Assembly (NCBI RefSeq): GCF_018274385.1
Contig: NZ_JAAFYZ010000032.1
Coordinates: forward strand, 1-64,000
Direction: 5' to 3'
Source of the DNA: Catenulispora pinistramenti
Lineage (GTDB): Bacteria > Actinomycetota > Actinomycetes > Streptomycetales > Catenulisporaceae
Length of the DNA: 64,000 nt
Part shown: positions 438-18,778 of the stretch, piece by piece
How the letters are laid out: every line of letters begins with the position of its first letter
Position numbering within the stretch: the stretch's first letter is position 1
Position numbers and translations under genes: made by a program
The notes under the pieces: model-generated
The model's database searches: none
What the model was told of the DNA's origin: nothing
What the model saw: only the letters and a program-made list of their open reading frames with translations

Positions 438-1253
438 ATGACCTCCCCCACCCCCGACGAAGACCTCCTCGCGATCTTCGACACCAGGATGCGCGCCACC
501 GCCGAGCCCGACGAACCCGGCGCCCGCGTCGAACACGCCGACGGCGTCCGCCGCCAAATCGGCGCACACCCCACGGACTGGCACGGCGTCCTGTACTCCG
601 ACCTGGACGCCACCACCGCCGACGCCGCGATCCAGGCCCAGATCGCCCACTTCCGCACCCTCGGCACCGACTTCGAGTGGAAGCACTACCGCCACGACCA
701 GCCCGCGGATCTGGCCCAAAGGCTGCAAGCGGCCGGCTTCGTAGCCGACGACCCGGAAACCCTGTTCGTGGCGGAGATCACACAGCTATCCGGCGCCGGG
801 CAACCCGGCGCCGGCCTGTCGGAAGCACTGCCGGACGGCATCTCCCTACGCGCGGTCACCACCGAGGCCGACGCCGACCTGGTCGGCGAAGCGTCCGAAG
901 CCGCCTTCGGCAGCGGCGGCGACCGAGCCCGCGACCGCGTCCTGGCCCGCCTGGCCGACGACCCCGAGACGGTCTGGACCTGGCTGGCCATGGCCGGCGA
1001 CCAACCCGTGAGCGCCGCCCGCATGCTGATCCACCCCGGCACCGGCTTCGCCAGCCTCTGGGGCGGCGGCACCGCCCCGCAATGGCGCGGACGCGGCATT
1101 TACCGGGCACTGGTGGCGCGGCGGATGCGGGTGGCCGCGGGCCTGGGGTGTGAGTACTTGCAGGTGGACGCGACGGATATGAGCCGGCCGATTCTGGAGC
1201 GGCTGGGGTTCCGGGCTCTGAGTGTCACGACGCCTTACGAGTTCAGGGTCTGA
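438..1253 (+). CDS. GNAT family N-acetyltransferase
   Basis: This 271-residue protein has a C-terminal GNAT fold. The acetyl-CoA binding motif A is visible as PQWRGRGIYRALV near residues 214-226, followed by a motif B-like segment (ILERLGFRAL) near the end. The N-terminal half (about 120 residues, rich in Asp and Ala) aligns with no domain I recognise and may be a degenerate second GNAT repeat. It is transcribed away from the glycine riboswitch, so the two share the region 341-437 as a divergent promoter area. The substrate is unknown. It is not obviously of the same subgroup as the GNATs at 1942-3116 and 12984-13568. Confidence 0.85.
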   Translation: MTSPTPDEDLLAIFDTRMRATAEPDEPGARVEHADGVRRQIGAHPTDWHGVLYSDLDATTADAAIQAQIAHFRTLGTDFEWKHYRHDQPADLAQRLQAAGFVADDPETLFVAEITQLSGAGQPGAGLSEALPDGISLRAVTTEADADLVGEASEAAFGSGGDRARDRVLARLADDPETVWTWLAMAGDQPVSAARMLIHPGTGFASLWGGGTAPQWRGRGIYRALVARRMRVAAGLGCEYLQVDATDMSRPILERLGFRALSVTTPYEFRV

Positions 1254-1323: not shown

Positions 1324-1791
1324 GTGGTAGCGGACCACGACGGCGAAGCACGGCTCACCACGTTCAAGGCATTGGTCGTTTCGCATTCCAACGCCATCGC
1401 CGAGGACCTTGAGCGGAGCCAACGCCACAAGCGGCCGTCCTGGGCGCGTTCGCGGTCGGAGCGGGAGGATCATCGCAGGACCCGTCGCGAATCCTCCGAG
1501 ACGGCCATCATCGCCGACTTCGACCGCATACAAACCGGCGCACGGCTCAGGTTCGTCTCCGCAGCCGCAGCCGCAGCCGCCGCCGCGCGCCCCGGGGCCT
1601 TGGTCCTGGACGACTTCTACGACCGCTCGGCGCCGTTCAAGCAGCGCTACGCCGACCTGATCGCCACGATGCCGGCCGCACGTGCGGAAGCGAGCGGCAG
1701 GGTCCTGCTGACCGGCGCCGAGGGCGAACACACGAGGCGACGCCTTCGTCATGGCGATAGAACACTTCTTGAGCCCGTTGGGCTTCAATGA
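1324..1791 (+). pseudogene. Possible degenerate coding sequence, unknown function
   Basis: A GTG-started frame of 155 codons lies here; its last half (ALVLDDFYDRSAPFKQRYAD...) looks protein-like, but its middle is a poly-Ala run and its start is Arg/Ser-rich. At about 1735 a second frame takes over plausibly (AFVMAIEHFLSPLGFNDT...), continuing to about 1905. This suggests a frameshifted remnant rather than an intact gene. I recognise no domain. The surrounding gap, 1254-1941, holds nothing else that I can support. Confidence 0.25.
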
Positions 1792-1941
1792 CACGAAGAG
1801 TGTTTCGGCAAGCTGGAAATCGACACTGGCGGTCGACGCCTACACCGGTGAGATACTACGGACGGTCTTCTTAGTGATGTTCATCCGGCGCATGTTCCGC
1901 CTGTGAGGGCAACACCGACGCACTACAGCCCCAGGCCCTGA

Positions 1942-2469
1942 TCACGAGGCAGGAACCTGCGGAACCATCGCGCCATTGACGTGCCCGCCGCCCGACCGCC
2001 CTGACTGGCTGCTGAGCAGCAAGGACATCACCATCCGATCTTCGCCGGGGCCGAAGTGATCCATGCGCTCTCCGGTGTCGAGGAAACCGGCGGTCTCGTA
2101 GAGATGACGGGCGATCTTGTTGGCGGGCTTGACCAGCAGGCGGACGACTTCCATATCGTGGTCCTGCAGACGTTGGATGGTCGCCCGCAGCAGCAGCTGG
2201 CCCCAGCCACGCCGCTGCCGCTCGGGGTGGATCGCCATCCCGACGATCCATCCGATGGCGGGATCCTCACCACGTGCGTTCACGGAGTGCCCCCAAGCCC
2301 CCTCGTCGTCCTCAGCCAGCAGCCAGAGACCGCCGGACGGATCGAAGATGACGTCGAGCGCGCTGCGCGTCAGGCTGTTGCTCCCGAACGCGGCGGCCTC
2401 CAACTCGGCGATCGCAGACAGATCCCTCTTCTTGACGCCGCGCAGCCGCGGAGGGTCGAACGAGTCCAC
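1942..2469 (-). CDS. GNAT acetyltransferase, left-edge copy 1 of the SCO252x island
   Basis: A GNAT protein of 175 residues from the GTG at 2469, chosen because GGAGGAG sits five bases upstream and because the resulting N-terminus (VDSFDPPRLRGVKKRD...) lines up with that of the next gene. The frame stays open upstream to 2718, but that extension overlaps the neighbour. Motif A is IHPERQRRGWGQLLL and the C-terminal ARHLYETAGF motif is typical of GNATs. It is clearly paralogous to the gene at 2649-3116 (shared IAELE...F..., WLLAED.EG.WG.S, GWI/GWLLA, HPER). It is the last gene of the leftward module and probably acetylates a protein or small molecule; substrate unknown. Confidence 0.85.
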   Translation of the reverse strand: MDSFDPPRLRGVKKRDLSAIAELEAAAFGSNSLTRSALDVIFDPSGGLWLLAEDDEGAWGHSVNARGEDPAIGWIVGMAIHPERQRRGWGQLLLRATIQRLQDHDMEVVRLLVKPANKIARHLYETAGFLDTGERMDHFGPGEDRMVMSLLLSSQSGRSGGGHVNGAMVPQVPAS

Positions 2470-2648
2470 GAAGTCTCCTCCAGGAGTCATCATCCGCCGA
2501 TGGACGATCTCCTCTTCGGGTGTACCCGGTCGTGGCGCGTCGGAAGCTCCGGACGGAGAATCGTGCGCCTGCGAGCCGTGGCGATGAGGGCATTGGCTCG
2601 CGTCGCACTCCCCTGTCGGCTGCCAGCGGGTGTCGAGAAAGCCCGCGG

Positions 2649-3116
2649 TCACGGTGTTGGCAAGAGCAAGGTCAGCATCTTGCGACCCTGGCCGTCGCCC
2701 AGATCGCCGTCCTTCCACTGGCCGGTGTCCTGGAAGCCGGCCCGGATGTACATGTCGTAGGCCGTCCAGTTCTCTGGCTTGACCGTCACCTTGATCGCGT
2801 TGGCCCCCTTGCTCTGCAGCCAGGCGATGGACTCGTCCAGCAGCCGCAGCCCGATGCGCAGGCCGCGCCGCTCCGGATGCACCCCCAGCGCCAGCAGCCA
2901 GCCGACCTGTGGATCGTCGGTGTCCCGCATGCTCAGTGAGTAGCCCCAGATCCCCTCGGAATCCTCGGCCACCAGCCAGGCCACCCCGGAAGGGCCGAAC
3001 AACTGCATCAGTGTGGAGAAGGTGAAACCTGTGCCCTCGAACACTATGTCTTCGAGTTCTGCGATCCGCGGCAGGTCATCTCCTTCAGCAGCCCGTACTG
3101 AAAGCGAAGCGCCCAC
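2649..3116 (-). CDS. GNAT acetyltransferase, left-edge copy 2 of the SCO252x island
   Basis: A 155-residue single-domain GNAT. Start is the GTG at 3116 with GGGAG five bases upstream, just nine bases after the stop of the SCO2521-like gene, so it is almost certainly co-transcribed with the module. Motif A reads GVHPERRGLRIGLRLL; the C-terminus has the usual YIRAGFQDTG strand-turn. The sequence pattern (IAELEDIVFEGTGF, WLVAEDSEGIWGYS) matches the downstream GNAT at 1942-2469 and more loosely the GNAT at 12984-13568 on the other edge of the island. Function beyond acetyl transfer is not known. Confidence 0.88.
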   Translation of the reverse strand: MGASLSVRAAEGDDLPRIAELEDIVFEGTGFTFSTLMQLFGPSGVAWLVAEDSEGIWGYSLSMRDTDDPQVGWLLALGVHPERRGLRIGLRLLDESIAWLQSKGANAIKVTVKPENWTAYDMYIRAGFQDTGQWKDGDLGDGQGRKMLTLLLPTP

Positions 3117-3125
3117 GTCAGCTCC

Positions 3126-4106
3126 CTAGACAACTTCCTTGTGCAGGGCCTCTTCAATCGCTTTCCGTGTCAACAGCGACACTTTGTCCCGGACCCGGGT
3201 CACAGTGGACTTCCATTCCCACGTCAGTTGTGCCTCATTCTCCAGGCGTTGCCACAGACCGCGCATCTCGTGAGGCAGGTGGGCCTCCGGATTCCACATG
3301 TGGCCCAGGTAGCTCAGCGCCGGATCCAGTTCACCCTCCGGGCGGCGGCCCCGCCGGTTCGAGCGCTCGAAGGCGTTTCGCAACGCTGACAATAGCCAGT
3401 GGTGCAATGCCAGAATCTCGCAGAACTCGACGAATTGTGGTAGCAGCTCGGCCGGAGTGCCGATCCGGACCCGCAGCATTCCGTCGTCCCGCAACTCGAC
3501 CAGGCTGTCCGGTTCCGCCCCGTCCTGGACGTGCACAGCCCACAGCAGGCGGCCGGTCTCGGTCTTCAGCCGGGGCTGCCGGTCTATCTGCGGCACCCGG
3601 TCCAGCAGGGACATCACGTAGGCCCCGGTCTTACCGAGGTCCAACACGGTGCTGTTTACCGCGCCCTGCAGGAACCCGGTCACCAGGTCGGCGGGGTCGG
3701 CCCTGTTGATCGCTTCCACGACGCCGGTCCGGGCCGCGTAGTGCGCCCAGGGCAGCCGCCGGCGGTTGGCGTCCAGCAGGACTTCGACGCGCGCCGAGCC
3801 CTGCAGGATGTGGCCGGCGGTGAGCACCGCCCGGGCCCGCGCCGTGCCGATCACCCTGGGCTGGGAACCGGCCCCGGGCGGGACGGCCAGTCGGCAGTCC
3901 AGGCCGAAGAAGATGTCCGGTGAGACCACCTGCTCGATCGGGTGCCGGTGCCAGTCCGGGCTGACGCCGGGAAGCAGGGCCAGCGCCTGGCGAGCCGCTT
4001 CCAGGGGAAGCGGTTCGGAGGTGTTCAGCAGACCGGTCGTCACGGCCCCTAGGACGACTTGTGGTCGCTGCCCACCCGGGTCCGACGGCCCGACAGGGCG
4101 CGCCAT
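3126..4106 (-). CDS. SCO2521-like conserved protein, left module
   Basis: A 326-residue soluble protein without recognised catalytic domain. It is the counterpart of the gene at 11890-12888: both have VSP....G.DCRL near residue 70, a following RVIGTA/RAIGTV strand, ILQG.A, a GVVE motif, an FCE..ALH.WLL segment in the C-terminal third and an LW...E helix near the end. Streptomyces homologues are named after S. coelicolor SCO2521 (recollection, to be verified). Start ATG at 4106 shares one base with the stop of the preceding gene (TGATG), so translation is likely coupled; a TTG at 4109 is an alternative. It follows the SCO2522-like gene and precedes a GNAT. Confidence 0.8.
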   Translation of the reverse strand: MARPVGPSDPGGQRPQVVLGAVTTGLLNTSEPLPLEAARQALALLPGVSPDWHRHPIEQVVSPDIFFGLDCRLAVPPGAGSQPRVIGTARARAVLTAGHILQGSARVEVLLDANRRRLPWAHYAARTGVVEAINRADPADLVTGFLQGAVNSTVLDLGKTGAYVMSLLDRVPQIDRQPRLKTETGRLLWAVHVQDGAEPDSLVELRDDGMLRVRIGTPAELLPQFVEFCEILALHHWLLSALRNAFERSNRRGRRPEGELDPALSYLGHMWNPEAHLPHEMRGLWQRLENEAQLTWEWKSTVTRVRDKVSLLTRKAIEEALHKEVV

Positions 4107-5125
4107 CAATTCCCGCCGGCCAGGAAGAAGTGGCTCAGCCGGTCGGCGATGACCGGCGGAAGGGGGACGTTCTTCGCGCCCGCCTGCCGATCGAGCGATT
4201 CCACCACCGCCGGGTCGGGGAGGAAGTGGTTGATGATGTTCTGCACCGAGTGCTCGATGGGCAGGAAGGTCCGGGGCAGGATGCTCAACGAGCGGTAGGC
4301 GTAGAACGGCTGGGCACTCGGATTGACCTTCACGATGTCAGGGCACTGATCCCACTCCGTACGCCACTCGCCGTCGAAGTCGGTGACCTTCAGTGCGGGC
4401 TGGCCGTCCTGGCGCAGCAGCCCCAGCCGGATGAGTTGCCAGACCGCGGCCAGGAACGGACAGGAGTATCGGCGGTTGCCCAGCTCTCCGTCATCCTCGC
4501 CCCCGGGCCTGCCCTGGCTGTCCCAGAGTTCGACGTCGAGGTAGATCGAGTGGTTGCGTTCGCCGAATTCGTGCGCCGGTTCCCACACGTGGGATTCCAT
4601 GGTCTCCAGCACGCGGGACTCACGCGGCGGCTTCCCGTTCGACATCCACCCCGACATCGAGATCGGCGGACGCCCGCCATTGGCCCCCTCCGGGAACGGC
4701 TCCTCCAGAAGCCGCGTGGCGACCAGTTCCGCGGTCTGGAATCCGTCCAGCCGCCGCGCGCACGCTGATTCCCGGGCGACGTAGTCGATGGTGACGCCGG
4801 CCTCGCGTGAGAGCCGCAGCAGCTTCTCCATTATCTGCGGGGCATCCGGCCAGTGCTGGAAGTAGTCATCGACCAGGAAGCAGGTGCTGACCCGCGGCCG
4901 CTCACCGCCGCTGATCGCCGAGGCCTTGGCGGCGTCCAGCCAGGGCTTGACCCGCTCGAACTGGGTGCGGATCGGCTCCTCGCCGTTCTCGAGCTCGTCC
5001 ATATAGAAGTGGCCGACCGCGACCGACAGGTGTGACAGGCCCAGGTTCTGCACGGTCGTGCCCTGGTTGCGCTCGTGAAACACCGAAGGCGCGGCGTCCG
5101 GGACCGCAGAGAACATGGCGCTCAC
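4106..5125 (-). CDS. SCO2522-like conserved protein, left module
   Basis: A 339-residue protein of unknown function, paralogous to 10881-11918. Both share LSHLSV..GH.Y near residue 30-40, the striking block STCFLVDDY (residues 80-88 here), IDY.ARE..CA, a GANG.RPP....GW.SNG segment, HS...D.ELW, and YSC..L.AVWQL.RLGLLR in the last third. The invariant Asp pair and Cys residues are candidates for metal binding or catalysis, but this is inference. The GTG start at 5125 overlaps the P-loop gene stop (GTGA, four bases); an ATG lies three codons in. No signal peptide or membrane span is visible. Confidence 0.8.
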   Translation of the reverse strand: MSAMFSAVPDAAPSVFHERNQGTTVQNLGLSHLSVAVGHFYMDELENGEEPIRTQFERVKPWLDAAKASAISGGERPRVSTCFLVDDYFQHWPDAPQIMEKLLRLSREAGVTIDYVARESACARRLDGFQTAELVATRLLEEPFPEGANGGRPPISMSGWMSNGKPPRESRVLETMESHVWEPAHEFGERNHSIYLDVELWDSQGRPGGEDDGELGNRRYSCPFLAAVWQLIRLGLLRQDGQPALKVTDFDGEWRTEWDQCPDIVKVNPSAQPFYAYRSLSILPRTFLPIEHSVQNIINHFLPDPAVVESLDRQAGAKNVPLPPVIADRLSHFFLAGGN

Positions 5126-6045
5126 CGTTCGAAACCTTCCCAGGCCTCATCATCGATCAGTTTGTTCGCGAGTTCTTCGAACGCCTGGGTGGTGGCCTTG
5201 TCGGCCAACCGGCGCTTGACGTCCACGTCCATGATCACCTGCTCTCGCCACAGCAGCATCGGCTCCAGCGGGGTGGTGCCGGCCAGCATGTCCAGCCCCA
5301 GCCCCCGGCTCTTGGCCAGGGTTTTGAGTATGTCGTCGCTGCGGCTGAGCCAGGCGTCCTGCTCAGCGGTGGTCTTCTTGCCGAAGGCCGAGGCGTCCGG
5401 CACCGCGGTGCGGATCGTGCGCACCAGGCGCAGGAACTCCCGCCTGGCGAAACCGGCCGCGAGGGCGCAGGAGAGGATACCGTTCTCCTCCAGCAGCAGA
5501 CCGCTGGCGGCGATCACGTGCTGTGTCGTCCACCGGTGGAACAGCAGCCAGCGAACCGCCTCTGCCTTCTTGGGCCGGTTCTTCGGCGAGATCGCTTGCA
5601 GGGACATGTCCAGCGCCGAGGACCGCCCGGCACTCAGGTCGACGATGCAGACGTCGAACTCGCGCTCCACGGTTTGGAAGAGCTCTGCCGCCTTCTTGAT
5701 GTGCTCGTTGGTGAGCGAGAACTCCGCACCGCCGACATCGCCGGGGAACAGGGTCAGCTTGCCCGAGCCGGGCGGCCGCTCCTTGAGCACCTGGCGCTCG
5801 GTGGTAGTGCGGATATCCGCGCGCACCGGCTCGGTGGCCCTGCCGCGGATGTAGGAGTGCAAGCCGCCGTTTCTGGTACCGCGCTCCAGGGTGGGGATCT
5901 CGAAGATCGCTCCGGCCGTGGGCGAGCCGAAGTCGAAGTCCAGGTACGCCACGTCCTGGCCGAGCAGCGAGAGCCGGTAGGCCAGGTTGCAGCTGGTCAC
6001 CGAGCGGCCGGTGCCGCCCTTGTCAGAGGAGGAGAAGATCAGCAT
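5122..6045 (-). CDS. SCO2523-like variant P-loop NTPase (ParA/MinD-like), left module
   Basis: A 307-residue SIMIBI-class protein. The N-terminus reads SDKGGTGRSVTSCN: the ParA/MinD signature lysine (K9) is present, but the canonical P-loop lysine is arginine (R14). Asp36 and Asp38 in LDFDFGSPT sit where ParA proteins have the switch I DxDP motif, and VCIVDLSAGRS (Asp136) is the Walker B/switch II strand. Streptomyces homologues are annotated as a variant P-loop family (SCO2523). The gene starts with ATG at 6045, two bases after the stop of the SCO2524-like gene, and ends overlapping the next start. Probably a nucleotide-dependent switch or positioning protein for the module; ATP binding is not proven. 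Confidence 0.85.
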   Translation of the reverse strand: MLIFSSSDKGGTGRSVTSCNLAYRLSLLGQDVAYLDFDFGSPTAGAIFEIPTLERGTRNGGLHSYIRGRATEPVRADIRTTTERQVLKERPPGSGKLTLFPGDVGGAEFSLTNEHIKKAAELFQTVEREFDVCIVDLSAGRSSALDMSLQAISPKNRPKKAEAVRWLLFHRWTTQHVIAASGLLLEENGILSCALAAGFARREFLRLVRTIRTAVPDASAFGKKTTAEQDAWLSRSDDILKTLAKSRGLGLDMLAGTTPLEPMLLWREQVIMDVDVKRRLADKATTQAFEELANKLIDDEAWEGFER

Positions 6046-6047
6046 GG

Positions 6048-7895
6048 TTACCGCCTCCTCCCGGCGTCCTCGCGAGCCTCTTCCAAGGCGTCCAGCAACC
6101 GCAGCGCGCGCTCAGCCAGCGCGATCGCGGTGCTCGTGCGGCGGAAGCGCAGCTCACGAGACCGCTTGATGTGCTCGCCGATCTCCTCCAGCCGGTCGCG
6201 CAGGGTAGAGCGGTCGTTGACGTTGGAGCGCAGCAGCTCCTGGTTGTATACGTGGTCTGCCTCGTGCAGCAGCCGGAGCAGATGGTCGTACATGCGGGAG
6301 CTGCGGGGCGGTTCCTGCTCGAACGCGGCGGCAGTGGCGACCAGGGCCTCTACGACACGCTCGGTCACGTACCAGGAGGGCTTGGCGAACGAGAGGTTCT
6401 CCAGGCCGGGGAAGTGCTGGAGGCTGTCCCACAGCTCGACCGGGTTGCCGTCCCGGATCAGGCGGCGCTCGTTGAGATGGTCCATGGCCGCCTCGGCGAC
6501 CGTCATAAGCGCCTCGCGGGCCTCGACGTTGTCGGTGAGCTGCGCGGCCTGCAGGGACCGCTTGATGATCAGCGGGGCGTAGTCCGCGGCATACAGTGCC
6601 AGGCCCGCGTCCACCACGTCCTCGCTGCCGCCCAGGCCCTGTCGCACACCGGGGTGGTGCAGGGCGACGGCGGGGTCGTCGTCAGTCATCCGGCGGGTGA
6701 TCCGGCCGCGGATGGCCAACTCCTGGATGATGCCGACCGCTTTGATCAGGTCGGCGTCGGTGGCGGCCCGGTTGATCAGGTCCTGGATCAGGACCGACAT
6801 GACCAGCAGGGAGTAGTAGTCGGACTCTTCGCCGTCGCTGGTGCGCCAGGGGATGTCCTCCAGCGGCCAGTGTTCCGGGTCGAAGCGCGCCATCGCCGAC
6901 CAGTATCGCTGGGTCAGGTCCCACCGCAGGGCCAGCGCGTCGGACAGCCTGCGCTGGTCCTCGTCCAGGATGTTCAGGGCCCTGATCCGGCGGGAGTCGA
7001 GGTCCACGATGCCGTCGAGGGCGGACACGGTGAAGTACAGCCAGGGGCGAGTCGTCGCGTACCCGTCCTTGGCGGCCACGTCGAAGTCGAAGTCCCCGAT
7101 CGACTCCGCGCCCTGGGCGATCCCCCAGGTCCAGCCGCACTCGAAGAGCTCGTCGTCGTCGGGCTTGGTGTCGTCCGGCACGCCCAGGCGCACGTCGGCG
7201 TGCAGCTGGCTGCGCAGCCGGCCGAACCGGGTGCTCAGGCCCTGCTGTAGCTCCGCGTCGGTGGTGTCGCCCTGCCGCAGCATGTTGAGGATGTTCTGGC
7301 CTTCGGCGGTGTCCACGCTGACGGAGTTCACCACGAAGCTGCGGAGCATGCCGACCATCGCGGCGGTCAGCCGTCGGGAGGCCCTCACCCGCAGATCGCC
7401 GAGCTTGTCCAGCTGCCGGGCCTGCTTCTCCTCCTCGGCGCGAGCGTTCACGAACACCAGCAGTGACAGGCACAGCGTGATCGATATGGAGTAGGCGTCG
7501 ACGACGTCGAGCCCCTGGAGCCGCTGGTCCTCTGGCAGCGGTTGGTCCGGATCCAGGGTCCGCAGATAGCTGCCGGCGCCGAACCGCGGCTGGCCGTCCT
7601 CGCCGGTGTGGTTGTCGAAGTACTCCAGCGCCACGTCCACCAGCGTGCGCGAGATCCGGCTGGACTCCCCCAGCGGCCGCAGCACGTCGAGCACGTCGTC
7701 GGGAATGGCGTCGGGATCGTAGACACCGAAGGTGTCGATCTGGGTGATCGGGTAGAAGAGACATAGGAGCTGTTCGGCGTCCGCGATGGAGTTGGACTCG
7801 GCGCGGCCGCCCCAGATCCACTTCTTTTGCTCGTAACAGTCCTTCAGCATGTCACGCCAGATGTCGAGGATCTGTTTGCGCGGTTCGATCCGCAC
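6048..7895 (-). CDS. SCO2524-like large helical protein, left module
   Basis: A protein of 615 residues from GTG 7895, chosen because GAGGGAGG lies upstream and because the N-terminus (VRIEPRKQILDIWR) then matches the paralogue at 8127. The frame extends to 8006, but that would cover most of the divergent promoter. Conserved blocks shared with the other copy are WGGR..SNSI.DAEQ (residues 28-42), YSIS.TLCLS, TAMVG.LRSFVVN, FECGW.WG.AQ, W..EDIPW and a C-terminal helical region. The pattern of regularly spaced helices recalls all-alpha barrel or repeat proteins, but I recognise no enzyme family. It is the first gene of its operon. Confidence 0.8.
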   Translation of the reverse strand: MRIEPRKQILDIWRDMLKDCYEQKKWIWGGRAESNSIADAEQLLCLFYPITQIDTFGVYDPDAIPDDVLDVLRPLGESSRISRTLVDVALEYFDNHTGEDGQPRFGAGSYLRTLDPDQPLPEDQRLQGLDVVDAYSISITLCLSLLVFVNARAEEEKQARQLDKLGDLRVRASRRLTAAMVGMLRSFVVNSVSVDTAEGQNILNMLRQGDTTDAELQQGLSTRFGRLRSQLHADVRLGVPDDTKPDDDELFECGWTWGIAQGAESIGDFDFDVAAKDGYATTRPWLYFTVSALDGIVDLDSRRIRALNILDEDQRRLSDALALRWDLTQRYWSAMARFDPEHWPLEDIPWRTSDGEESDYYSLLVMSVLIQDLINRAATDADLIKAVGIIQELAIRGRITRRMTDDDPAVALHHPGVRQGLGGSEDVVDAGLALYAADYAPLIIKRSLQAAQLTDNVEAREALMTVAEAAMDHLNERRLIRDGNPVELWDSLQHFPGLENLSFAKPSWYVTERVVEALVATAAAFEQEPPRSSRMYDHLLRLLHEADHVYNQELLRSNVNDRSTLRDRLEEIGEHIKRSRELRFRRTSTAIALAERALRLLDALEEAREDAGRRR

Positions 7896-8126
7896 CGGGG
7901 CCTCCCTCAGGGAAGATCGCCATGTCAGGACCCTACTTTCGCCCCGCCATGCTATCGGCTCCCCCTCCCGGCGCCGAACCGTTCCGGGGATTCCCGCCAC
8001 CTGCATGTATCAGACCCCGACAACCTGGGTAGGGGAGTTGTCCGGCAGACAACGCCGTGCCGGTCCGGCATGCGACATGGGACCGAACACGCGCGATCGG
8101 GGCAGGTCAGGGCAGGGGCGGCAGCT
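7896..8126. promoter_or_regulatory. Divergent promoter region with alternating GACAAC/GTTGTC sites
   Basis: This 231-bp region separates the start codons of the two SCO2524-like genes and must hold promoters for both modules. It contains GACAAC at 8019-8024, GTTGTC at 8037-8042 and GACAAC at 8048-8053. The last two make a perfect six-base inverted repeat with a five-base spacer, and the first two an inverted repeat with a twelve-base spacer. This looks like a regulator binding site placed to control one or both arms. No convincing -35/-10 pair could be fixed by eye. Confidence 0.5.
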
Positions 8127-9962
8127 TTGAGAACGAACCCACGACAACACATCCTGGACACGTGGCGGGCCTTCGCGCGCGCGACGTTCGGTAGCGGGGA
8201 GTGGGCCTGGGGTGGCCGCTACGCCTCGAACAGCATCAGCGATGCCGAACAGATCTTGATCCTCCTCTACCCGGCGACCGAGGTCGCCGGCTTCCGGCTG
8301 GACCGGCCGGACTCCATCGAGGACGACGTGCTCGCGGTGCTCAGACCCATGGGCAGCGGCCTGGACATCCCGATGCGGATGCTGGAGGCACTGGAGCAGT
8401 ACCTGGCCCGCTACACCGACGACGACGGCGGTCCGACCTTCACCGGCGGTTCCTATCTGCTGGCCGAGGACCCAGACGAGGAGGTGAAGCCGGAGCAGTA
8501 CGCCTACGACATCACAGAGTCGTACTCGATCTCCGTCACCCTCTGTCTGTCAGCGAAGGGCTTCTTGCGCGAGTTCCAGCGCACGGTCGAGCGGCGCGAG
8601 CTACAGAACCGGATCGAGGCCGTGATCCTGGCCATGGACCAGCGCCTGACCTCGGCCATGGTCGGCCTGCTGCGCTCGTTCGTCGTCAACGTCCTGGACC
8701 CCGACTCCGCTGCCGAGGCCGTCCTGCTGCGCACGGTCAGCCAGGGCCGGGTCGTGGGCCGGACGCTGACCCAGGACCTGCGCGGTCGGCTGCAGCCGGT
8801 CCGTGACAAGCTGCCGGAGCTGACCTTCGGTCTGCCGCCGGAGAACGAGCAGATGCTGCGGGACTATCCCGAGCGCTTCTTCGAGTGCGGCTGGGCCTGG
8901 GGGGTGGCCCAGGACGCCACGGACATCGAGTTGACGGCCGCCGAAAGTGTGAAGCAGCCCCACGGCATCGCCGAGTCGCGTCCGCTGCTGCACTTCACGG
9001 TCAACGCCCTCGACGGTCTGGCCGACCTCTTCTCCACCCGCACCTCGCGCCAAGGCCTGCTGACCTCCGAACAGCAGTCCCTGCGTGAGGCCCTGAACCT
9101 GCGCTGGGGTCTGGCGCTGCAGTACTGGTCCACGATCGCCACCTTCGGCTCCGGCCGCTGGGCGATCGAGGACGTGCCGTGGGAGGCGACCACCGGTCAG
9201 AGCTCGCCGTACTTCACCGAGCTGGTGCTCGCGATCGTCGCGATGTCGCAGCAGGGCGGCACCATCAGCGGCAGCATCGGACGAAGCGTCGCTGTGCTGG
9301 AGGAGCTGGGCCAGCGCGGTCTGGTGAGCCGGCGCGCGGCCGAGGACGACCGCGGCGTGCTGCTGCACGATCCCGGCGTCCTGATGCGCTTGGGCGGATC
9401 AGAGCTGGAAGGGCCGTCGTTGGCGTGGTCCTACAACGGTTTCGCCGCCGCCTTGGCCAAGACCGCGCTGCGCGTCGCGAACATCAGCAGCAGCCGCCGC
9501 AACCGGGCCCGCCTGATCGAGGTCGCGGACGCCTCGGTGGAGCACCTGCTCGCCCGGCGGCAACCGTCCGACGGGCTGTGGGACCACCCCGCCAACGTCT
9601 ACCCCCGCCTCGCGCAGGCGCCCGCCACTCCGGCCTGGGACATGACCGAGCGCTGCATCGAGGTCTTCGTCGCCGCGGCCGCGCTGGTCAGCGCCCCTCC
9701 GGTGGCCGACCAGGGCCAGGTGGACCAGGCCAACAACAAGATCGCCGAGGCCCGGCACATCCTGGACCAGGAGCGTTTGACCACCCCCACGGCCGGTGGG
9801 TCGCAGGAACAGAAGCTGCTCCGGGAGGCCGAACAATCGCTGAACCGCGCCGACTCGCTGTCCGGCGAGCGGCCCGCGACGGCCGCGGCGCTGGCAGACA
9901 AGGTACTCAGAGACTTGGACGAACTGGCCTTCGCCCGCCAAGCAGCGAGCAGGAGCGCATGA
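8127..9962 (+). CDS. SCO2524-like large helical protein, right module
   Basis: A 611-residue paralogue of 6048-7895. I place the start at TTG 8127 because LRTNPRQHILDTWR then aligns residue for residue with the other copy (W26, WGGR, SNSI.DAEQ at identical positions) and AGGGGCGG precedes it; an in-frame ATG at 8070 is the alternative. Conserved features: YSISVTLCLS, TSAMVGLLRSFVVN, FECGWAWGVAQ near residue 252, and W.IEDVPW. The C-terminal 100 residues are charged and helical (possible coiled coil). First gene of the rightward operon, one base before the P-loop gene. Function unknown. Confidence 0.8.
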   Translation: MRTNPRQHILDTWRAFARATFGSGEWAWGGRYASNSISDAEQILILLYPATEVAGFRLDRPDSIEDDVLAVLRPMGSGLDIPMRMLEALEQYLARYTDDDGGPTFTGGSYLLAEDPDEEVKPEQYAYDITESYSISVTLCLSAKGFLREFQRTVERRELQNRIEAVILAMDQRLTSAMVGLLRSFVVNVLDPDSAAEAVLLRTVSQGRVVGRTLTQDLRGRLQPVRDKLPELTFGLPPENEQMLRDYPERFFECGWAWGVAQDATDIELTAAESVKQPHGIAESRPLLHFTVNALDGLADLFSTRTSRQGLLTSEQQSLREALNLRWGLALQYWSTIATFGSGRWAIEDVPWEATTGQSSPYFTELVLAIVAMSQQGGTISGSIGRSVAVLEELGQRGLVSRRAAEDDRGVLLHDPGVLMRLGGSELEGPSLAWSYNGFAAALAKTALRVANISSSRRNRARLIEVADASVEHLLARRQPSDGLWDHPANVYPRLAQAPATPAWDMTERCIEVFVAAAALVSAPPVADQGQVDQANNKIAEARHILDQERLTTPTAGGSQEQKLLREAEQSLNRADSLSGERPATAAALADKVLRDLDELAFARQAASRSA

Positions 9963-9963
9963 C

Positions 9964-10884
9964 GTGCTGATATTCGCCACCTCCGACAAGGGAGGCACGG
10001 GGCGTTCGGTGACCAGTTGCAACATGGCCTACCGACGGGCGTTGCAGGGCGAGGCGGTCGCCTATCTCGACTTCGACTTCGGATCGCCCACCGCCGGCGC
10101 GATCTTCGATGTTCCCAAGGCCGAGCGCGGCGTGGACGCCTCGGGCCTGCACTCGTACTTCACCAAACACACCGAGGCCCAACAGCTGGACACGGCGCTG
10201 CACTCGGACAGCGACACGCTGCGCGACCTGCCGCGGATCTCCGGCGCCAGCCGACTGGTGCTGCTACCCGGGGACAAAGACGGCGGGGAGTTCTCGATCA
10301 GCGCGGACATGCCAGCCCGCTGCGCCCAGCTGTTCCTGAAGCTGGACCGCGAGTTCGACCTGTGCATCGTGGACCTGTCCGCGGGCCGCTCCTACGCCGT
10401 AGACCTGGTCCTGGAGGCCACCGCCCGACCCGAACTGGCCGCGCTGACCAGCCGCTGGCTGGTCTTCCACCGCTGGACCAAACAGCACATCCTGGCCGCA
10501 CACGGCCTGGTGTTCGGCGAGAAGGGGCTGCTGAAGGCCGGCGAGCGGCGGGGCCACGACCCGCAGAAGCTGAACAACTCAGTCCGCTACGTCCGCACCG
10601 CGGTCGTGGACCTGGGCGTGGATCAGGAGTCGGTGACCCGGCCGGCGCAGGGCGCCTGGCTGCGCGCCTACGACCAGAAGCTACGGGAACAGGCGGACAA
10701 GCTGCGCATGGGCCGGGCCCGGTTGGCCGGGCAGATACCCTACGACCCGATGCTCCAGTGGAGCGAGCAGGTGATCGACGACTCCGACGTGAGCGGACTG
10801 AAGATCGCCAACCAGGCCACCGTGCAGGCCTTCGAAGACCTCGCCGCGAAACTGTCGGACGAGAGATTCTGGGAAGGGCTGTGA
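9964..10884 (+). CDS. SCO2523-like variant P-loop NTPase (ParA/MinD-like), right module
   Basis: A 306-residue paralogue of 5122-6045 with the same altered P-loop: K9 of KGGTGRS is kept and the second lysine is R14. LDFDFGSPTAG (Asp36, Asp38) and LCIVDLSAGRS (Asp137) are also kept. Shared downstream motifs are W..FHRWT.QH..AA.GL and the C-terminal ...A....FE.LA.KL.D..WEG. Starts at GTG 9964, one base after the upstream stop (TGACGTG), with AGGAG upstream; its own stop overlaps the next gene by four bases. Retention of the arginine in two diverged copies argues that it is functional rather than a decay product. Confidence 0.85.
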   Translation: MLIFATSDKGGTGRSVTSCNMAYRRALQGEAVAYLDFDFGSPTAGAIFDVPKAERGVDASGLHSYFTKHTEAQQLDTALHSDSDTLRDLPRISGASRLVLLPGDKDGGEFSISADMPARCAQLFLKLDREFDLCIVDLSAGRSYAVDLVLEATARPELAALTSRWLVFHRWTKQHILAAHGLVFGEKGLLKAGERRGHDPQKLNNSVRYVRTAVVDLGVDQESVTRPAQGAWLRAYDQKLREQADKLRMGRARLAGQIPYDPMLQWSEQVIDDSDVSGLKIANQATVQAFEDLAAKLSDERFWEGL

Positions 10885-11918
10885 CGGCCGTGGACGTGAG
10901 CTACGACGAGATGACCCAGTCCGCGCGGGTGGAGGCGGTACCACTGAGCCATCTCTCGGTCGAGACCGGGCACCTCTACCTGGAGGACTTCGCCGACGGC
11001 GACCGCAGGATCGCCCGGCAGCTGGAGCAGGCAGCACCGTGGTTGGAAGCGGCGACCAAGCGGACCCGCAAGCGGTTCGGCCGCAACGCCAGGATCAGCA
11101 CCTGCTTCCTGGTCGACGACTACTCCCCGTCCGGCCCGGTGGACGACCAGCCCAAGCCCTCGGAGGTGGTGGACATCGTGACCACCGCCGCCGACCAGGC
11201 CGGTTTCAAGATCGACTACCTGGCGCGGGAGGCTGGCTGCGCGATCGCCTGCGAGCGCCCTTACTCCGGGCCGCGCGACCAGAGCCCACTGGCGAACATC
11301 GTCGCCGGACTCATCGTCGAGGAGGCCGCGGTCGGCGCCAACGGCTCGCGGCCGCCGACCGCGCAGACCGGCTGGCTGTCCAACGGGGAGCGCTCCCCGG
11401 CCGTCTCGGTGGCCATGGACGCCCCTCAGTGGGAGCCGCCTGAGGAGTTCGGGAAGTACCGGCACTCGGTGTTCGTGGACATCGAGCTGTGGAGCCAGGA
11501 CAGCAACCTGCAGTCCGCGGAGCGTCAGTACTCGTGCTCGTTGCTGTCGGCGGTCTGGCAGCTGCTGCGACTGGGCCTGCTGCGCGACGCCGGCAAGGCC
11601 GTCGCCAAGCCCTACCGGTTCGGCTCCGGCGAAGGGTTCCCGGATCTGTGGCAGCAACTGCCGAGCATCACCCAGCTGACGTCGGACGCCGCCCCGTTCG
11701 CGGCGTATCAGGCCCTTTCCGTCCTGCCGCCGCACTTCCGCGCGGCCGAACACGCCGCCGAGATCATCATCGACCACCTGCGCTTCGACAAGGCGGTGCT
11801 GAAACAGACCGCGGACCGGGCCCGGGACGAGACGAACGCGGTGACATTACCCGACAACCCGGTGGGCCGCGTGAGCCATTTGTTCTTCGATGACGTCCAT
11901 GTCACACGCAACGACTGA
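10881..11918 (+). CDS. SCO2522-like conserved protein, right module
   Basis: A 345-residue protein from GTG 10881, which overlaps the P-loop stop as GTGA exactly as in the left module, with GGGAAGGG upstream. The frame is open further 5' to 10017, but that part is only the shadow of the P-loop gene. Residues 74-81 carry the family block STCFLVDDY; PLSHLSVETGHLY, IDYLAREAGCA, GANGSRPP, HSVFVDIELW and YSCSLLSAVWQLLRLGLLR are also shared with 4106-5125. An insertion before the GANG block makes this copy slightly longer. Soluble, function unknown. Confidence 0.8.
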   Translation: MTAVDVSYDEMTQSARVEAVPLSHLSVETGHLYLEDFADGDRRIARQLEQAAPWLEAATKRTRKRFGRNARISTCFLVDDYSPSGPVDDQPKPSEVVDIVTTAADQAGFKIDYLAREAGCAIACERPYSGPRDQSPLANIVAGLIVEEAAVGANGSRPPTAQTGWLSNGERSPAVSVAMDAPQWEPPEEFGKYRHSVFVDIELWSQDSNLQSAERQYSCSLLSAVWQLLRLGLLRDAGKAVAKPYRFGSGEGFPDLWQQLPSITQLTSDAAPFAAYQALSVLPPHFRAAEHAAEIIIDHLRFDKAVLKQTADRARDETNAVTLPDNPVGRVSHLFFDDVHVTRND

Positions 11919-12888
11919 CCGGGACCCGATCCCGGCCGTCCCCGACGACGGCGCGCAGCCCCTGCTGGGGTTCGGCGAGGTGCGCACCTGCCTGATCCAG
12001 AACCTGGCCGGCCTGTCCCCCTCGGCCAGCGTCGCCCTGATGCAGCTGACCCCCGGCTCCCCGGTGAGCAAGGTGGACCGGCCGACCCGCCGCGTGGTGT
12101 CCCCGGAACAGGTCACCGGGGTGGACTGCCGGCTGCACGTGGCGCGCGAGGGCCGGGGCCGGGCGATCGGCACCGTGCTGAGCCACGCGGTCGTGACCAA
12201 CGGCCGCATCCTGCAGGGCACGGCACACGCGGCCCTCGCCTCGGCCACGGCCAAGGAGCGCCGCGAGTGGCGGCACTACCTGCGCCAGCCCGGCGTCGTG
12301 GAGGTGCTGGGCTCACCGAAACCGCACAACGTCATGGACGGCTACCTCACCGACGCCTCCCCGGCCCGCGGCCTGGACCTGGCCTCGATCAGCGACCGGA
12401 TCATCGACGAGGTCCAGCAGAGCGACCGCCTGGACCACACCACCGCCCTGCGCACCGGCACGGCCGTGGTCCGCTGGGCCGCCACGCTGGCCCAGGAGGC
12501 CAAGCCGACGGTCGGGATAGCGAAGAGCGACATACCGAACTTCCACGTGATCCGGCTCAACGGATCGCCGGAAGACCTGCCGATGCTGATCCGTTTCTGC
12601 GAGGAGTTCGCGCTGCACGAGTGGCTGCTGACCACGGTGCAGGACGTCATCGTGCCCCGCGCCGAAGCCGACATCGCCCGCGACCGTGATCCCTTGGACT
12701 CGCTGCTGTTCGCTCTCAATGAGTTGGCGCCACTATGGATGCCTCCGACGCACCTGAGCCCGGATATGAAGGCGTTGTGGGAAGCTATGGAGAGCCGGAC
12801 ACACTACTCGCGGTTGTTCGAGCGTCAGGTCGCGCGGATCCGCGACCTCCGGGACCAGGTGAAGATCAGGCCGCCCCGACGTTTCTAG
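11890..12888 (+). CDS. SCO2521-like conserved protein, right module
   Basis: A 332-residue counterpart of 3126-4106. Shared blocks are VSPEQVTGVDCRLHV, RAIGTVL, ILQGTAH, GVVEV, FCEEFALHEWLL and a final MKALWEAME helix. The ATG at 11890 lies 29 bases inside the preceding gene; ATG 11899 is equally possible, and neither has a strong Shine-Dalgarno sequence, so reinitiation after the SCO2522-like gene is likely. It is the last of the four core genes. A GNAT gene follows after about 95 bp, mirroring the left module. Confidence 0.8.
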   Translation: MTSMSHATTDRDPIPAVPDDGAQPLLGFGEVRTCLIQNLAGLSPSASVALMQLTPGSPVSKVDRPTRRVVSPEQVTGVDCRLHVAREGRGRAIGTVLSHAVVTNGRILQGTAHAALASATAKERREWRHYLRQPGVVEVLGSPKPHNVMDGYLTDASPARGLDLASISDRIIDEVQQSDRLDHTTALRTGTAVVRWAATLAQEAKPTVGIAKSDIPNFHVIRLNGSPEDLPMLIRFCEEFALHEWLLTTVQDVIVPRAEADIARDRDPLDSLLFALNELAPLWMPPTHLSPDMKALWEAMESRTHYSRLFERQVARIRDLRDQVKIRPPRRF

Positions 12889-12983
12889 GGGCGCGGCGCT
12901 TGCGAACCAGGCGTGATCGAGGCGCGTGGACACTTATTGCAGCATCCTGCGTACAAGCCGATGCCGCCGGACGGTAACATGCC

Positions 12984-13568
12984 ATGGAAGGTGGTCCCGA
13001 TACCCCGTATCAGGAACCTGTAAACCCTTATCCGACGTCTGACGAGGTGTGCGTGACCACCACCCGCGAGGAGCTGGGCAGTAAGTCCGACTATGCGACT
13101 CTGCGCTCCGTCGTCAAAGCCGACCTGAAAGCCCTTGCGAACCTCGACGAAGAGGTCTTCGGCAACGCCGCCTACTCGTTGATGTACATGACGTCGCTGT
13201 ACCTCATGTTCCGCAAGAGCTGGTACCTCGCCGAGCACGAAGGCGGTCTGGCGGGCTACGCCCTGGTGTGCCCGGACTCGGACAACTCCGAAGTCTGGCT
13301 GATGGGTCTCGCCGTCAGCGGAAACTGTCAGGGACACGGCCTCGGCCGCACTCTGATGGCCCGGGCCATGGAGCTGATGATGGACTCCGGAGCCCCCGAC
13401 GCCTACATCACCGTCCGCCCCGACAACAAGGCCGCCCGCCACCTCTACGAGGCATTCGAGTTCACCGCGGACGGCGAGGAGCGCGACAACTTCTACGGGA
13501 ACGGCGAGCCGCGCCAGGTGTTCCATCGCTCTCTGGTCAAGAACCCATATACCGCGGCTCCCGCCTAG
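12984..13568 (+). CDS. GNAT acetyltransferase, right-edge copy of the SCO252x island
   Basis: A GNAT protein of 194 residues from ATG 12984, or 171 from GTG 13053, which has GAGG at a good distance and removes a Pro-rich tail absent from its relatives. Motif A is GNCQGHGLGRTLMARAM and the C-terminal part reads VRPDNKAARHLYEAFEF. Its plan (LA.LDEEVFG, WYLAEHEGGLAGYAL, WLMGLAVS) resembles the two GNATs at the other edge of the island, so one ancestral acetyltransferase probably belonged to the module. Its stop is interleaved with that of the convergent membrane-protein gene in the palindrome CTAG. Confidence 0.85.
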   Translation: MEGGPDTPYQEPVNPYPTSDEVCVTTTREELGSKSDYATLRSVVKADLKALANLDEEVFGNAAYSLMYMTSLYLMFRKSWYLAEHEGGLAGYALVCPDSDNSEVWLMGLAVSGNCQGHGLGRTLMARAMELMMDSGAPDAYITVRPDNKAARHLYEAFEFTADGEERDNFYGNGEPRQVFHRSLVKNPYTAAPA

Positions 13569-14377
13569 TCCCTGACCAGGAACGCGAAGAAGATCGCCAT
13601 CGAGATGCTGCCGAAGTAGCTCTCGATGACCAGCAGCACCTGCCCGGCTCCGCTGAACGCCCCGTCCAGGTCGCCGAAGGACAGCGGATTGAGGAAGTTG
13701 ATCAGGCACCCGTGCAGCGACCGCACGTACCCCGCCGGCCCGCACAGCCACACCGCCACGCTGAACACCAGCAGCGTCAGCGCCATCCAGCCGAGCATCC
13801 GGAACGGGCGGTAGCCGTACCCGCAGATCGCGTCGTACATCGCCTCGAAGAAGCGGGCCGGGCCGCGTGGGCGGGCCTGCTGTTGCGCGCGCCGCAGGTT
13901 CAGGAGCGATAGTTCGCGCTTGGGCTTCTGCTGGAGCTGGAGGAACAGGTCTGCCGCGCTCTGGAACGCCGACATGGCGTGCCCCGGCATTCCGAGCGCG
14001 ACGAATTCCTTGCCGATCGCGTCATAGTGGGCTGCGATGCGTCCGGTCTGCGTGCGGCTGAGGCGGAACTGTCCGCGCCTCTCGGTCTCGGTCGCCAGGA
14101 AGGACCGGATCACCGCCGCCCGGCGCGCGTCGGGATCCCCGCTCGTGGTCTTGCGCCACTCGTAGAACTCCTTCTCCAACGCCAGGTCCCCACCGCGTTC
14201 CCGCGGGGAGGGGACCCGGCTGTCGAAGGCGTACACCAGGGGTGGCAGGTAGCTGTCGAGGAGCTCCAGCAGCTCCTCTTCGCCGAGCTTCTTCTCGGTG
14301 CCGTCGCGGTATCTCAGCTCGCACTTGGCTATGTCGTCGATCACTGATTCGACGCCGGGGAAACTCGAGGTCGGCAC
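13565..14377 (-). CDS. Two-helix membrane protein with potassium-channel-like C-terminus
   Basis: A 270-residue protein with a charged cytosolic region of about 190 residues and a C-terminal TM1-loop-TM2 module: TM1 about 195-217 (MLGWMALTLLVFSVAVWL), a hydrophobic loop ending LSFGDLDG, and TM2 about 243-268 ending at the C-terminus. The order matches the pore module of Ion_trans_2 potassium channels, with LSFGD in place of the selectivity filter TVGYGD; conduction is therefore doubtful. The N-terminal region contains a helix pair typical of tetratricopeptide-like folds (FVALGMPGHAMSAFQSAADLFLQLQ). Starts at GTG 14377. It converges on the GNAT gene at 12984-13568 with interleaved stop codons. 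Confidence 0.65.
   Translation of the reverse strand: MPTSSFPGVESVIDDIAKCELRYRDGTEKKLGEEELLELLDSYLPPLVYAFDSRVPSPRERGGDLALEKEFYEWRKTTSGDPDARRAAVIRSFLATETERRGQFRLSRTQTGRIAAHYDAIGKEFVALGMPGHAMSAFQSAADLFLQLQQKPKRELSLLNLRRAQQQARPRGPARFFEAMYDAICGYGYRPFRMLGWMALTLLVFSVAVWLCGPAGYVRSLHGCLINFLNPLSFGDLDGAFSGAGQVLLVIESYFGSISMAIFFAFLVRD

Positions 14378-16864: not shown

Positions 16865-18778
<1,914 letters not shown>

What the first reader, a model, noticed from the sequence alone, without database searches (positions are those of the whole stretch)
1942..13568. Mirror-image pair of SCO2521-SCO2524-like modules with GNATs at both edges
The sequence shows two four-gene modules in identical order diverging from one promoter region: SCO2524-like, variant P-loop SCO2523-like, SCO2522-like and SCO2521-like. 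Each ends in GNAT acetyltransferase genes. All four proteins in one arm have a clear paralogue in the other, with the same junction types (stop/start gap of one or two bases, GTGA overlap). Established knowledge: these families are named after S. coelicolor loci and have no assigned function that I know of. Inference: an inverted duplication created two versions of a multiprotein machine, perhaps working with each other or with different targets. This is my top candidate for an undescribed system.
Basis: partly seen in the sequence, partly recalled or inferred. Interest (0 to 1): 0.85.

Follow-up and report, generated by a model that had tools for sequence, protein, structure and literature searches.

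The report
Paired ancient SCO2521-2524 gene cassettes
Two complete but anciently diverged versions of an uncharacterised actinobacterial gene cassette sit back to back in this genome, and comparison with relatives shows that each cassette normally includes an acetyltransferase and one of two alternative membrane proteins, which points to a membrane-linked machine of unknown job.

Summary
In detail: two full SCO2524-2523-2522-2521 operons diverge from a 231-bp gap, with GNAT genes at both outer ends. The inverted-duplication reading fails. The arms are only 30-49% identical, fall in different clades (AU p = 0.008 against one clade) and coexist in all 10 Catenulispora genomes examined. Arm B is the family's inherited copy (sister genera have it with the same GNAT and membrane-protein order). 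Arm A is closest to Nocardia/Pseudonocardiaceae/Frankia copies and was not found in four sister-genus genomes. Between the window and C. pinisilvae the blocks are reordered without any strand change. Pairs of diverged modules recur independently in Nocardia.

New here: the module is part of a larger cassette. GNATs lie within three genes in 75 of 97 loci. Each locus carries one of two unrelated membrane proteins, never both (54 versus 37, six with neither): one with a degenerate K-channel-like pore loop, the other a DUF6879-type anchored protein, usually with the SCO2525 methyltransferase. SCO2524 is predicted to be an (alpha/alpha)6 toroid. SCO2523 has Arg for the P-loop Lys. Function remains inferred: an ATPase-switched, membrane-linked machine. 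In S. coelicolor the neighbouring SCO2525 is reported to affect growth and development.

The parts
438..1253 (+). flanking GNAT acetyltransferase (GNATl3), conserved border of the locus in Catenulispora
   Evidence: Pfam PF00583; syntenic in 9 loci
1324..1903 (+). broken c6' gene: remnant of the second membrane (pore-loop) protein, frameshifted and missing about 300 bp against C. pinisilvae
   Evidence: tblastn hits in frame +1 (1330-1809) and frame +2 (1712-1903) to the intact 298-aa homologue; DNA blocks with the gap
1942..2469 (-). GNAT acetyltransferase GNATl2 (ORF open to 2718; start uncertain)
   Evidence: PF00583 E 2.7e-12; gene call
2649..3116 (-). GNAT acetyltransferase GNATl, next to arm A
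   Evidence: PF00583 E 6.2e-11
3126..4109 (-). SCO2521 family protein, arm A
   Evidence: NF040565, 343.5 bits
4106..5125 (-). SCO2522 family protein, arm A
   Evidence: NF040566, 339.7 bits
5122..6045 (-). SCO2523 family variant P-loop ATPase-like protein, arm A (KGGTGRS)
   Evidence: NF040564, 435.3 bits; motif
6048..7895 (-). SCO2524 family protein, arm A; predicted (alpha/alpha)6 toroid
   Evidence: NF040567, 695.7 bits; AlphaFold2 pLDDT 92; Foldseek
7896..8126 (.). intergenic region between the two arms, conserved in the other divergent-order species (79-83% identity)
8010..8031 (+). element TCAGANCCC-N(7-8)-GGGTA upstream of SCO2524 arm B; travels with arm B in both gene orders; candidate operator or promoter element
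8127..9962 (+). SCO2524 family protein, arm B
   Evidence: NF040567, 675.5 bits on the longer ORF 7827-9962
9964..10884 (+). SCO2523 family variant P-loop ATPase-like protein, arm B (KGGTGRS)
   Evidence: NF040564, 445.9 bits
10881..11918 (+). SCO2522 family protein, arm B; predicted alpha/beta fold
   Evidence: NF040566, 359.3 bits; AlphaFold2 pLDDT 87
11890..12888 (+). SCO2521 family protein, arm B
   Evidence: NF040565, 282.8 bits
12984..13568 (+). GNAT acetyltransferase GNATr, next to arm B (start possibly 13053)
   Evidence: PF00583 E 9.6e-17
13565..14377 (-). c6 membrane protein: helical N-terminal part plus two hydrophobic segments around a degenerate pore loop (NFLNPxxxxD); arm B's partner by synteny and tree

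Best explanation
The locus holds two complete, anciently diverged cassettes of one actinobacterial system, not a mirror duplication. Each cassette consists of a four-protein core (SCO2524, a predicted (alpha/alpha)6 toroid; SCO2523, a MinD/ParA-type ATPase whose P-loop Lys is Arg; SCO2522 and SCO2521, two orphan proteins), a GNAT acetyltransferase, and one membrane protein that is either a pore-loop (degenerate K-channel-like) protein or a membrane-anchored DUF6879 protein. Arm B with GNATr and the c6 gene at 13565-14377 is inherited in the family; arm A, probably with GNATl/GNATl2 and a c6' gene that is broken in this genome, is a second lineage gained before the genus Catenulispora radiated. 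Proposed mechanism (inferred): the toroid binds or processes a small ligand, SCO2523 in its nucleotide-bound state assembles or switches the core on the membrane protein, and the membrane protein gives the output (ion flux or local envelope change), while the GNAT and, in other taxa, the SCO2525 methyltransferase modify the ligand or a protein. Two arms give two specificities. Anatomy and history are about 0.9 likely; this particular mechanism about 0.3.
For: Shown: family identities; two copies in 10 of 10 genus genomes; A and B each one clade at 100% on opposite sides of the deepest split; AU p = 0.008 against one A+B clade; arm B clusters with sister genera at 98-100% and those loci read 2521-GNAT-c6 in the same order; c6 of the window groups with a sister-genus c6 (92/88); arm A sits with Nocardia/Frankia/Pseudonocardiaceae (99%) and was not seen in 4 sister-genus genomes. 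In 97 loci with both flanks: c6 in 54, c5 in 37, both in 0, neither in 6; GNAT within three genes in 75; GNAT per gene 92/638 near versus 0/655 at five or more genes away. SCO2523 KGGTGRS invariant. SCO2524 model pLDDT 92; its better Foldseek hits are nearly all (alpha/alpha)6 enzymes, best E 2.3e-3, prob 1.00, target TM 0.44-0.54. Pore loop of c6 aligned in register with Ion_trans_2 channels, P 0.001 and 0.019, all unrelated control pairs at or above 0.088. Both arms under purifying selection, dN/dS 0.09-0.36.
Against: No step of the mechanism is demonstrated. No profile-level match of SCO2524 to (alpha/alpha)6 enzyme families and no Pfam hit, so the toroid rests on fold comparison alone. The c6 channel likeness is weak and its selectivity filter is not TxGYGD; Pfam does not see a channel. 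SCO2521 has no fold information. Which GNAT and c6 belong to arm A is not settled by their trees. The exclusivity of c5 and c6 reflects few evolutionary switches, not 91 independent ones.
Confidence: 0.4

Rival explanations
1. A tailoring or small-molecule/glycan pathway: SCO2524 acts as a carbohydrate-active or cyclase-type toroid enzyme, SCO2522 as an activating alpha/beta enzyme, and the GNAT and methyltransferase decorate the product; SCO2523 is an accessory ATPase and the membrane protein an exporter or sensor.
For: The structural neighbours of SCO2524 are mostly (alpha/alpha)6 enzymes such as cellobiose 2-epimerase and GH76. Many invariant polar and aromatic residues in SCO2524 and SCO2522 look like active sites. 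GNAT and a PNMT/NNMT-type methyltransferase accompany the core. SCO2525 has a reported growth phenotype (PMC11472566, PMC6344877).
Against: No profile match of SCO2524 to AGE or GH76 families or of SCO2522 to aminoacyl-tRNA synthetases. No further gene family travels with the cassette across taxa that would supply a precursor or carrier. A MinD-type switch and exchangeable membrane proteins fit signalling better.
Confidence: 0.3
2. A phage-defence or other conflict system with exchangeable membrane effectors (pore-former or anchored DUF6879 protein), gated by the core.
For: Patchy distribution (37 of 395 genomes of the class); exchangeable membrane partner; pairs of diverged modules side by side; inactive-looking MinD-like domains occur in actinobacterial conflict systems (PMC7159879).
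Against: No PADLOC system match in the genes tested, only a weak partial P-loop hit. No relative of arm B SCO2524 on 72,556 plasmids or 50,697 phages, and none in IMG/VR contigs. Present in all 14 genomes of its family. Stable chromosomal neighbourhoods among related species. A growth/development phenotype is reported for SCO2525. None of these excludes defence.
Confidence: 0.2
3. One reading: a recent inverted duplication created the two arms.
For: Same gene order, opposite strands, two of three junction types shared.
Against: Identity only 30-49%; separate clades with other taxa in between; AU p = 0.008; block order, not block strand, changes between species.
Confidence: 0.03

Closest known systems
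SCO2521-SCO2526 operon of Streptomyces coelicolor (HupS regulon; PMC11472566)
   Same: Same four core families in the same order (NF040564-NF040567).
   Different: Streptomyces-type loci have one module with the SCO2525 methyltransferase, the c5 (DUF6879-type) membrane protein and a divergent GNAT; the window has two modules, c6 instead of c5 and no SCO2525.
Nocardia SCO2521-2524 modules
   Same: Core plus c6 membrane protein plus GNAT; closest clade to arm A together with Pseudonocardiaceae and Frankia copies.
   Different: Usually one module, with c6 convergent to 2521; a few Nocardia have pairs of their own.
MinD/ParA-type (deviant Walker A) ATPases, including the KGGVGR variant domain NF047398
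   Same: Same P-loop region and fold class (E 2e-9 to 6e-9); signature Lys kept.
   Different: P-loop Lys replaced by Arg in all aligned members (KGGTGRS).
Two-helix pore-loop potassium channels (PF07885)
   Same: Hydrophobic segment, pore-loop-like stretch ending in GD, hydrophobic segment in c6.
   Different: Filter is NPxGxGD-like, not TxGYGD; Pfam does not score it.
(alpha/alpha)6 toroid enzymes (AGE/cellobiose 2-epimerase, GH76, GH9)
   Same: Predicted fold of SCO2524.
   Different: No detectable sequence relation.

Membership tests
SCO2521-SCO2524 modules (NCBIfam NF040564-NF040567) | all four proteins above the curated cut-off, adjacent and co-directional | tested here: met
   both arms
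SCO2521-SCO2524 modules, Streptomyces type | SCO2525 methyltransferase next to SCO2524 | tested here: not met
   absent next to both arms; found in 32 of 97 loci with both flanks, 30 of them with c5
MinD/ParA ATPases | deviant Walker A with signature Lys | tested here: met
   SDKGGTGRS, K9 invariant
MinD/ParA ATPases | P-loop Lys that contacts the phosphates | tested here: not met
   Arg at this place in all 11 aligned members
MinD/ParA ATPases | ATP binding and hydrolysis | not testable with these tools
   needs biochemistry
Potassium channels (Ion_trans_2) | TxGYGD selectivity filter and Pfam score over cut-off | tested here: not met
Potassium channels (Ion_trans_2) | two membrane helices around a pore loop | tested here: inconclusive
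   sequence pattern and profile alignment P 0.001-0.019; no structure predicted
(alpha/alpha)6 toroid fold | fold match to solved toroids | tested here: met
   Foldseek prob 0.9-1.0 for the toroid hits, target TM about 0.5, best E 2.3e-3 on a pLDDT 92 model
(alpha/alpha)6 toroid enzymes | sequence membership in AGE or GH76 families | tested here: not met
Class I aminoacyl-tRNA synthetase-like fold for SCO2522 | significant fold or profile match | tested here: not met
   ArgRS best hit only E 0.08; profile P 0.16-0.20
Known defence systems (PADLOC) | model match | tested here: not met
   only an E 6e-5 partial hit on the P-loop
Conservons (cvnA-D) | histidine-kinase-like CvnA, roadblock CvnB, DUF742 CvnC, GTPase CvnD | tested here: not met
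   no such Pfam domains in the eight core genes

The most novel reading that the evidence does not exclude
The SCO2521-2524 core with GNAT and an interchangeable membrane protein is an undescribed class of actinobacterial machine in which a Lys-to-Arg MinD-type switch controls a pore-loop or anchored output protein, and neighbouring diverged copies, gained repeatedly next to one another, work as an interacting pair.
Probability: 0.2. Interest if true: 0.8.

Novelty: new variant of a known kind. Interest (0 to 1): 0.55.

Why it matters
These four families are named only after Streptomyces loci. Showing that they travel with a GNAT and with one of two unrelated membrane proteins gives a testable picture of the whole cassette, and the fold of the largest subunit suggests a ligand or substrate pocket. 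Catenulispora, with two diverged cassettes at one locus, and several Nocardia with their own pairs offer natural material to ask whether copies cooperate, insulate or compete. A reported SCO2525 phenotype in S. coelicolor makes a link to growth and development testable.

Tried and rejected
Recent inverted duplication: rejected by trees and synteny. Class I aminoacyl-tRNA synthetase identity for SCO2522 (suggested by a GH motif, a DD motif and weak Foldseek hits): not supported by profile comparison; my first comparisons used partly wrong reading frames and are replaced. AGE/GH76 membership of SCO2524: no profile support. Solved-structure sequence searches with SCO2521, SCO2522, SCO2524 and c6 profiles gave nothing useful. 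Viral fold search of SCO2522: nothing. Plasmid, phage and viral-contig searches with SCO2524: no relative. An intermediate idea that the convergent order is ancestral and that the window's GNATs sit next to the wrong arm was dropped after sister genera showed 2521-GNAT-c6 for arm B in the window's order. The value printed for c5 against channels comes from a stale file and is not used.

Full report
Observation. Window 3126-7895 (minus; SCO2521 ORF from 4109) and 8127-12888 (plus) are two complete SCO2521-SCO2524 operons; every one of the eight proteins exceeds its NCBIfam cut-off by a wide margin, and none has a Pfam domain except the P-loop region of SCO2523. The starts of the two SCO2524 genes are separated by 231 bp. 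GNAT genes flank both ends. Two of the three gene junctions are of the same type in both arms; the 2522/2521 junction differs. The genome holds no further copy of SCO2523 above the cut-off.

Not a mirror duplication. The arms are 37, 49, 40 and 30% identical for SCO2524, 2523, 2522 and 2521. All 10 genomes of the genus, which contig names identify as Catenulispora, hold exactly two SCO2524 genes. In a tree of the four concatenated proteins from 70 modules, A and B each form one clade with full support on opposite sides of the deepest split; holding A and B together costs 32 log-likelihood units, AU p = 0.008. With the sister genera added (SCO2524 alone, mixture model), arm B groups with modules of two other genomes of the family (98-100%), while arm A groups with Nocardia, Frankia and Pseudonocardiaceae modules (99%) and is not seen in the four sister-genus genomes. 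Whether the B lineage is nearer to the A side or to the Streptomyces type depends on data and model and is left open. That arm A came by horizontal transfer is inference.

Block order. Compared with the near relative Catenulispora pinisilvae (core proteins 91-96% identical), all blocks lie on the same strand but in another order: the four genes of arm B lie to the left of c6', GNATl and arm A there, and to the right here. Thus A-B runs divergent in the window, in C. rubra and in two further species, and convergent in five others. Tandem duplication with loss, or movement of arm B as a unit, explains this; a single inversion does not. A short element, TCAGANCCC-N(7-8)-GGGTA, lies upstream of 2524B in both orders and is nearly unique in each genome that has it, so arm B seems to carry its own upstream control site. 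In two sister-genus genomes arm B is followed by GNAT and c6, in one of them exactly as in the window, so the window's right half looks ancestral.

The cassette is larger than four genes. In 97 loci with flanks on both sides, a GNAT lies within three genes of the module in 75; per gene the frequency is 92/638 near against 0/655 five or more genes away. The GNAT profile was built from part of these loci, and many loci are close relatives, so the p-value is not to be taken literally. Each locus has at most one of two unrelated membrane proteins: c6 in 54, c5 in 37, both in none, neither in six. c5 has an N-terminal hydrophobic region and a DUF6879-like C-terminal part and goes with the SCO2525 methyltransferase (NF040568). 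c6 has an N-terminal part without hydrophobic segments and a C-terminal pattern hydrophobic segment, NFLNPxGxGD, hydrophobic segment that aligns in register with the pore of Ion_trans_2 channels (P = 0.0011 with pore regions; 0.019 with whole proteins; control pairs 0.088 or higher). This is suggestive, not proof. In the window the c6 gene at 13565-14377 is intact, while c6' at about 1324-1903 is broken by a deletion and a frameshift.

Core proteins. SCO2523 keeps the MinD-type signature Lys but has Arg in place of the P-loop Lys in all aligned members, with further invariant motifs such as DFDFGSPTA and DxSAGR. SCO2524 is predicted with high confidence (pLDDT 92) and its Foldseek neighbours are mostly (alpha/alpha)6 enzymes: cellobiose 2-epimerases, GH76 mannanases, GH9 and GH48 enzymes, a squalene-hopene cyclase (best E 2.3e-3, target TM 0.44-0.54). 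Profile comparison does not connect it to AGE or GH76. SCO2522 is an alpha/beta protein (pLDDT 87) with only weak hits. SCO2521 stays without fold evidence.

Is one arm decaying? The core is not. All eight core genes have dN/dS 0.09-0.36 against C. pinisilvae, with arm A's 2524 and 2523 evolving faster than arm B's (0.33 and 0.36 against 0.13 and 0.09). Only the c6' gene is broken.

Pairs recur. N. vaccinii, N. bovistercoris and Nocardia sp. SYP-A9097 each carry two modules side by side that are 46-55% identical to each other but 54-89% identical to a module in another species; N. arizonensis has a lone second SCO2522. So modules of different lineages have come to lie next to each other several times. 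Whether this reflects cooperation or just recombination at a homologous site is unknown.

Function. The literature held here gives two leads: the operon sco2521-sco2526 belongs to the HupS regulon of S. coelicolor (PMC11472566), and SCO2525 is described as a methyltransferase needed for normal growth or with a morphogenetic role (PMC11472566, PMC6344877, PMC3017869), citing Gehring et al. 2004, which was not readable here. No relative of SCO2524 was found on plasmids, phages or viral contigs, and PADLOC gave no system match. The proposal that the core is an ATPase-switched machine with a membrane output, with a ligand pocket in the toroid and acetyl- and methyl-transfer as modification steps, is inference from this anatomy; a biosynthetic or tailoring pathway is nearly as likely.

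Noticed in passing
window 1324-1903: Remnant of a second c6-type membrane protein gene, frameshifted and lacking about 300 bp; intact in C. pinisilvae and in two divergent-order species.
   Followed up: yes
window 8010-8031; L054, L055, L059, L060, L062: Element TCAGANCCC-N(7-8)-GGGTA upstream of SCO2524 arm B; found there in 6 of 10 Catenulispora genomes, with only three single matches elsewhere in the ten genomes; some copies are near-perfect inverted repeats (CCCTGTGACAGGG).
   Followed up: partly
L104, L138, L140, L147: Nocardia loci with two diverged SCO2521-2524 modules (or a remnant of one) side by side, in tandem or convergent.
   Followed up: partly
L264 7918-12535: In a sister-genus genome a shortened run (2524-2523-2524) without detectable 2522 and 2521, one copy on a long branch: possibly decaying.
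   Followed up: no
window 12984-13568: GNATr has a much higher synonymous divergence from C. pinisilvae (dS 0.38) than its neighbours (0.11-0.23), as if exchanged or misaligned.
   Followed up: no
window 16865-18778: ORF with RecD2-type HHH and AAA_30 domain matches and a long Asp/Ser-rich repetitive stretch.
   Followed up: no
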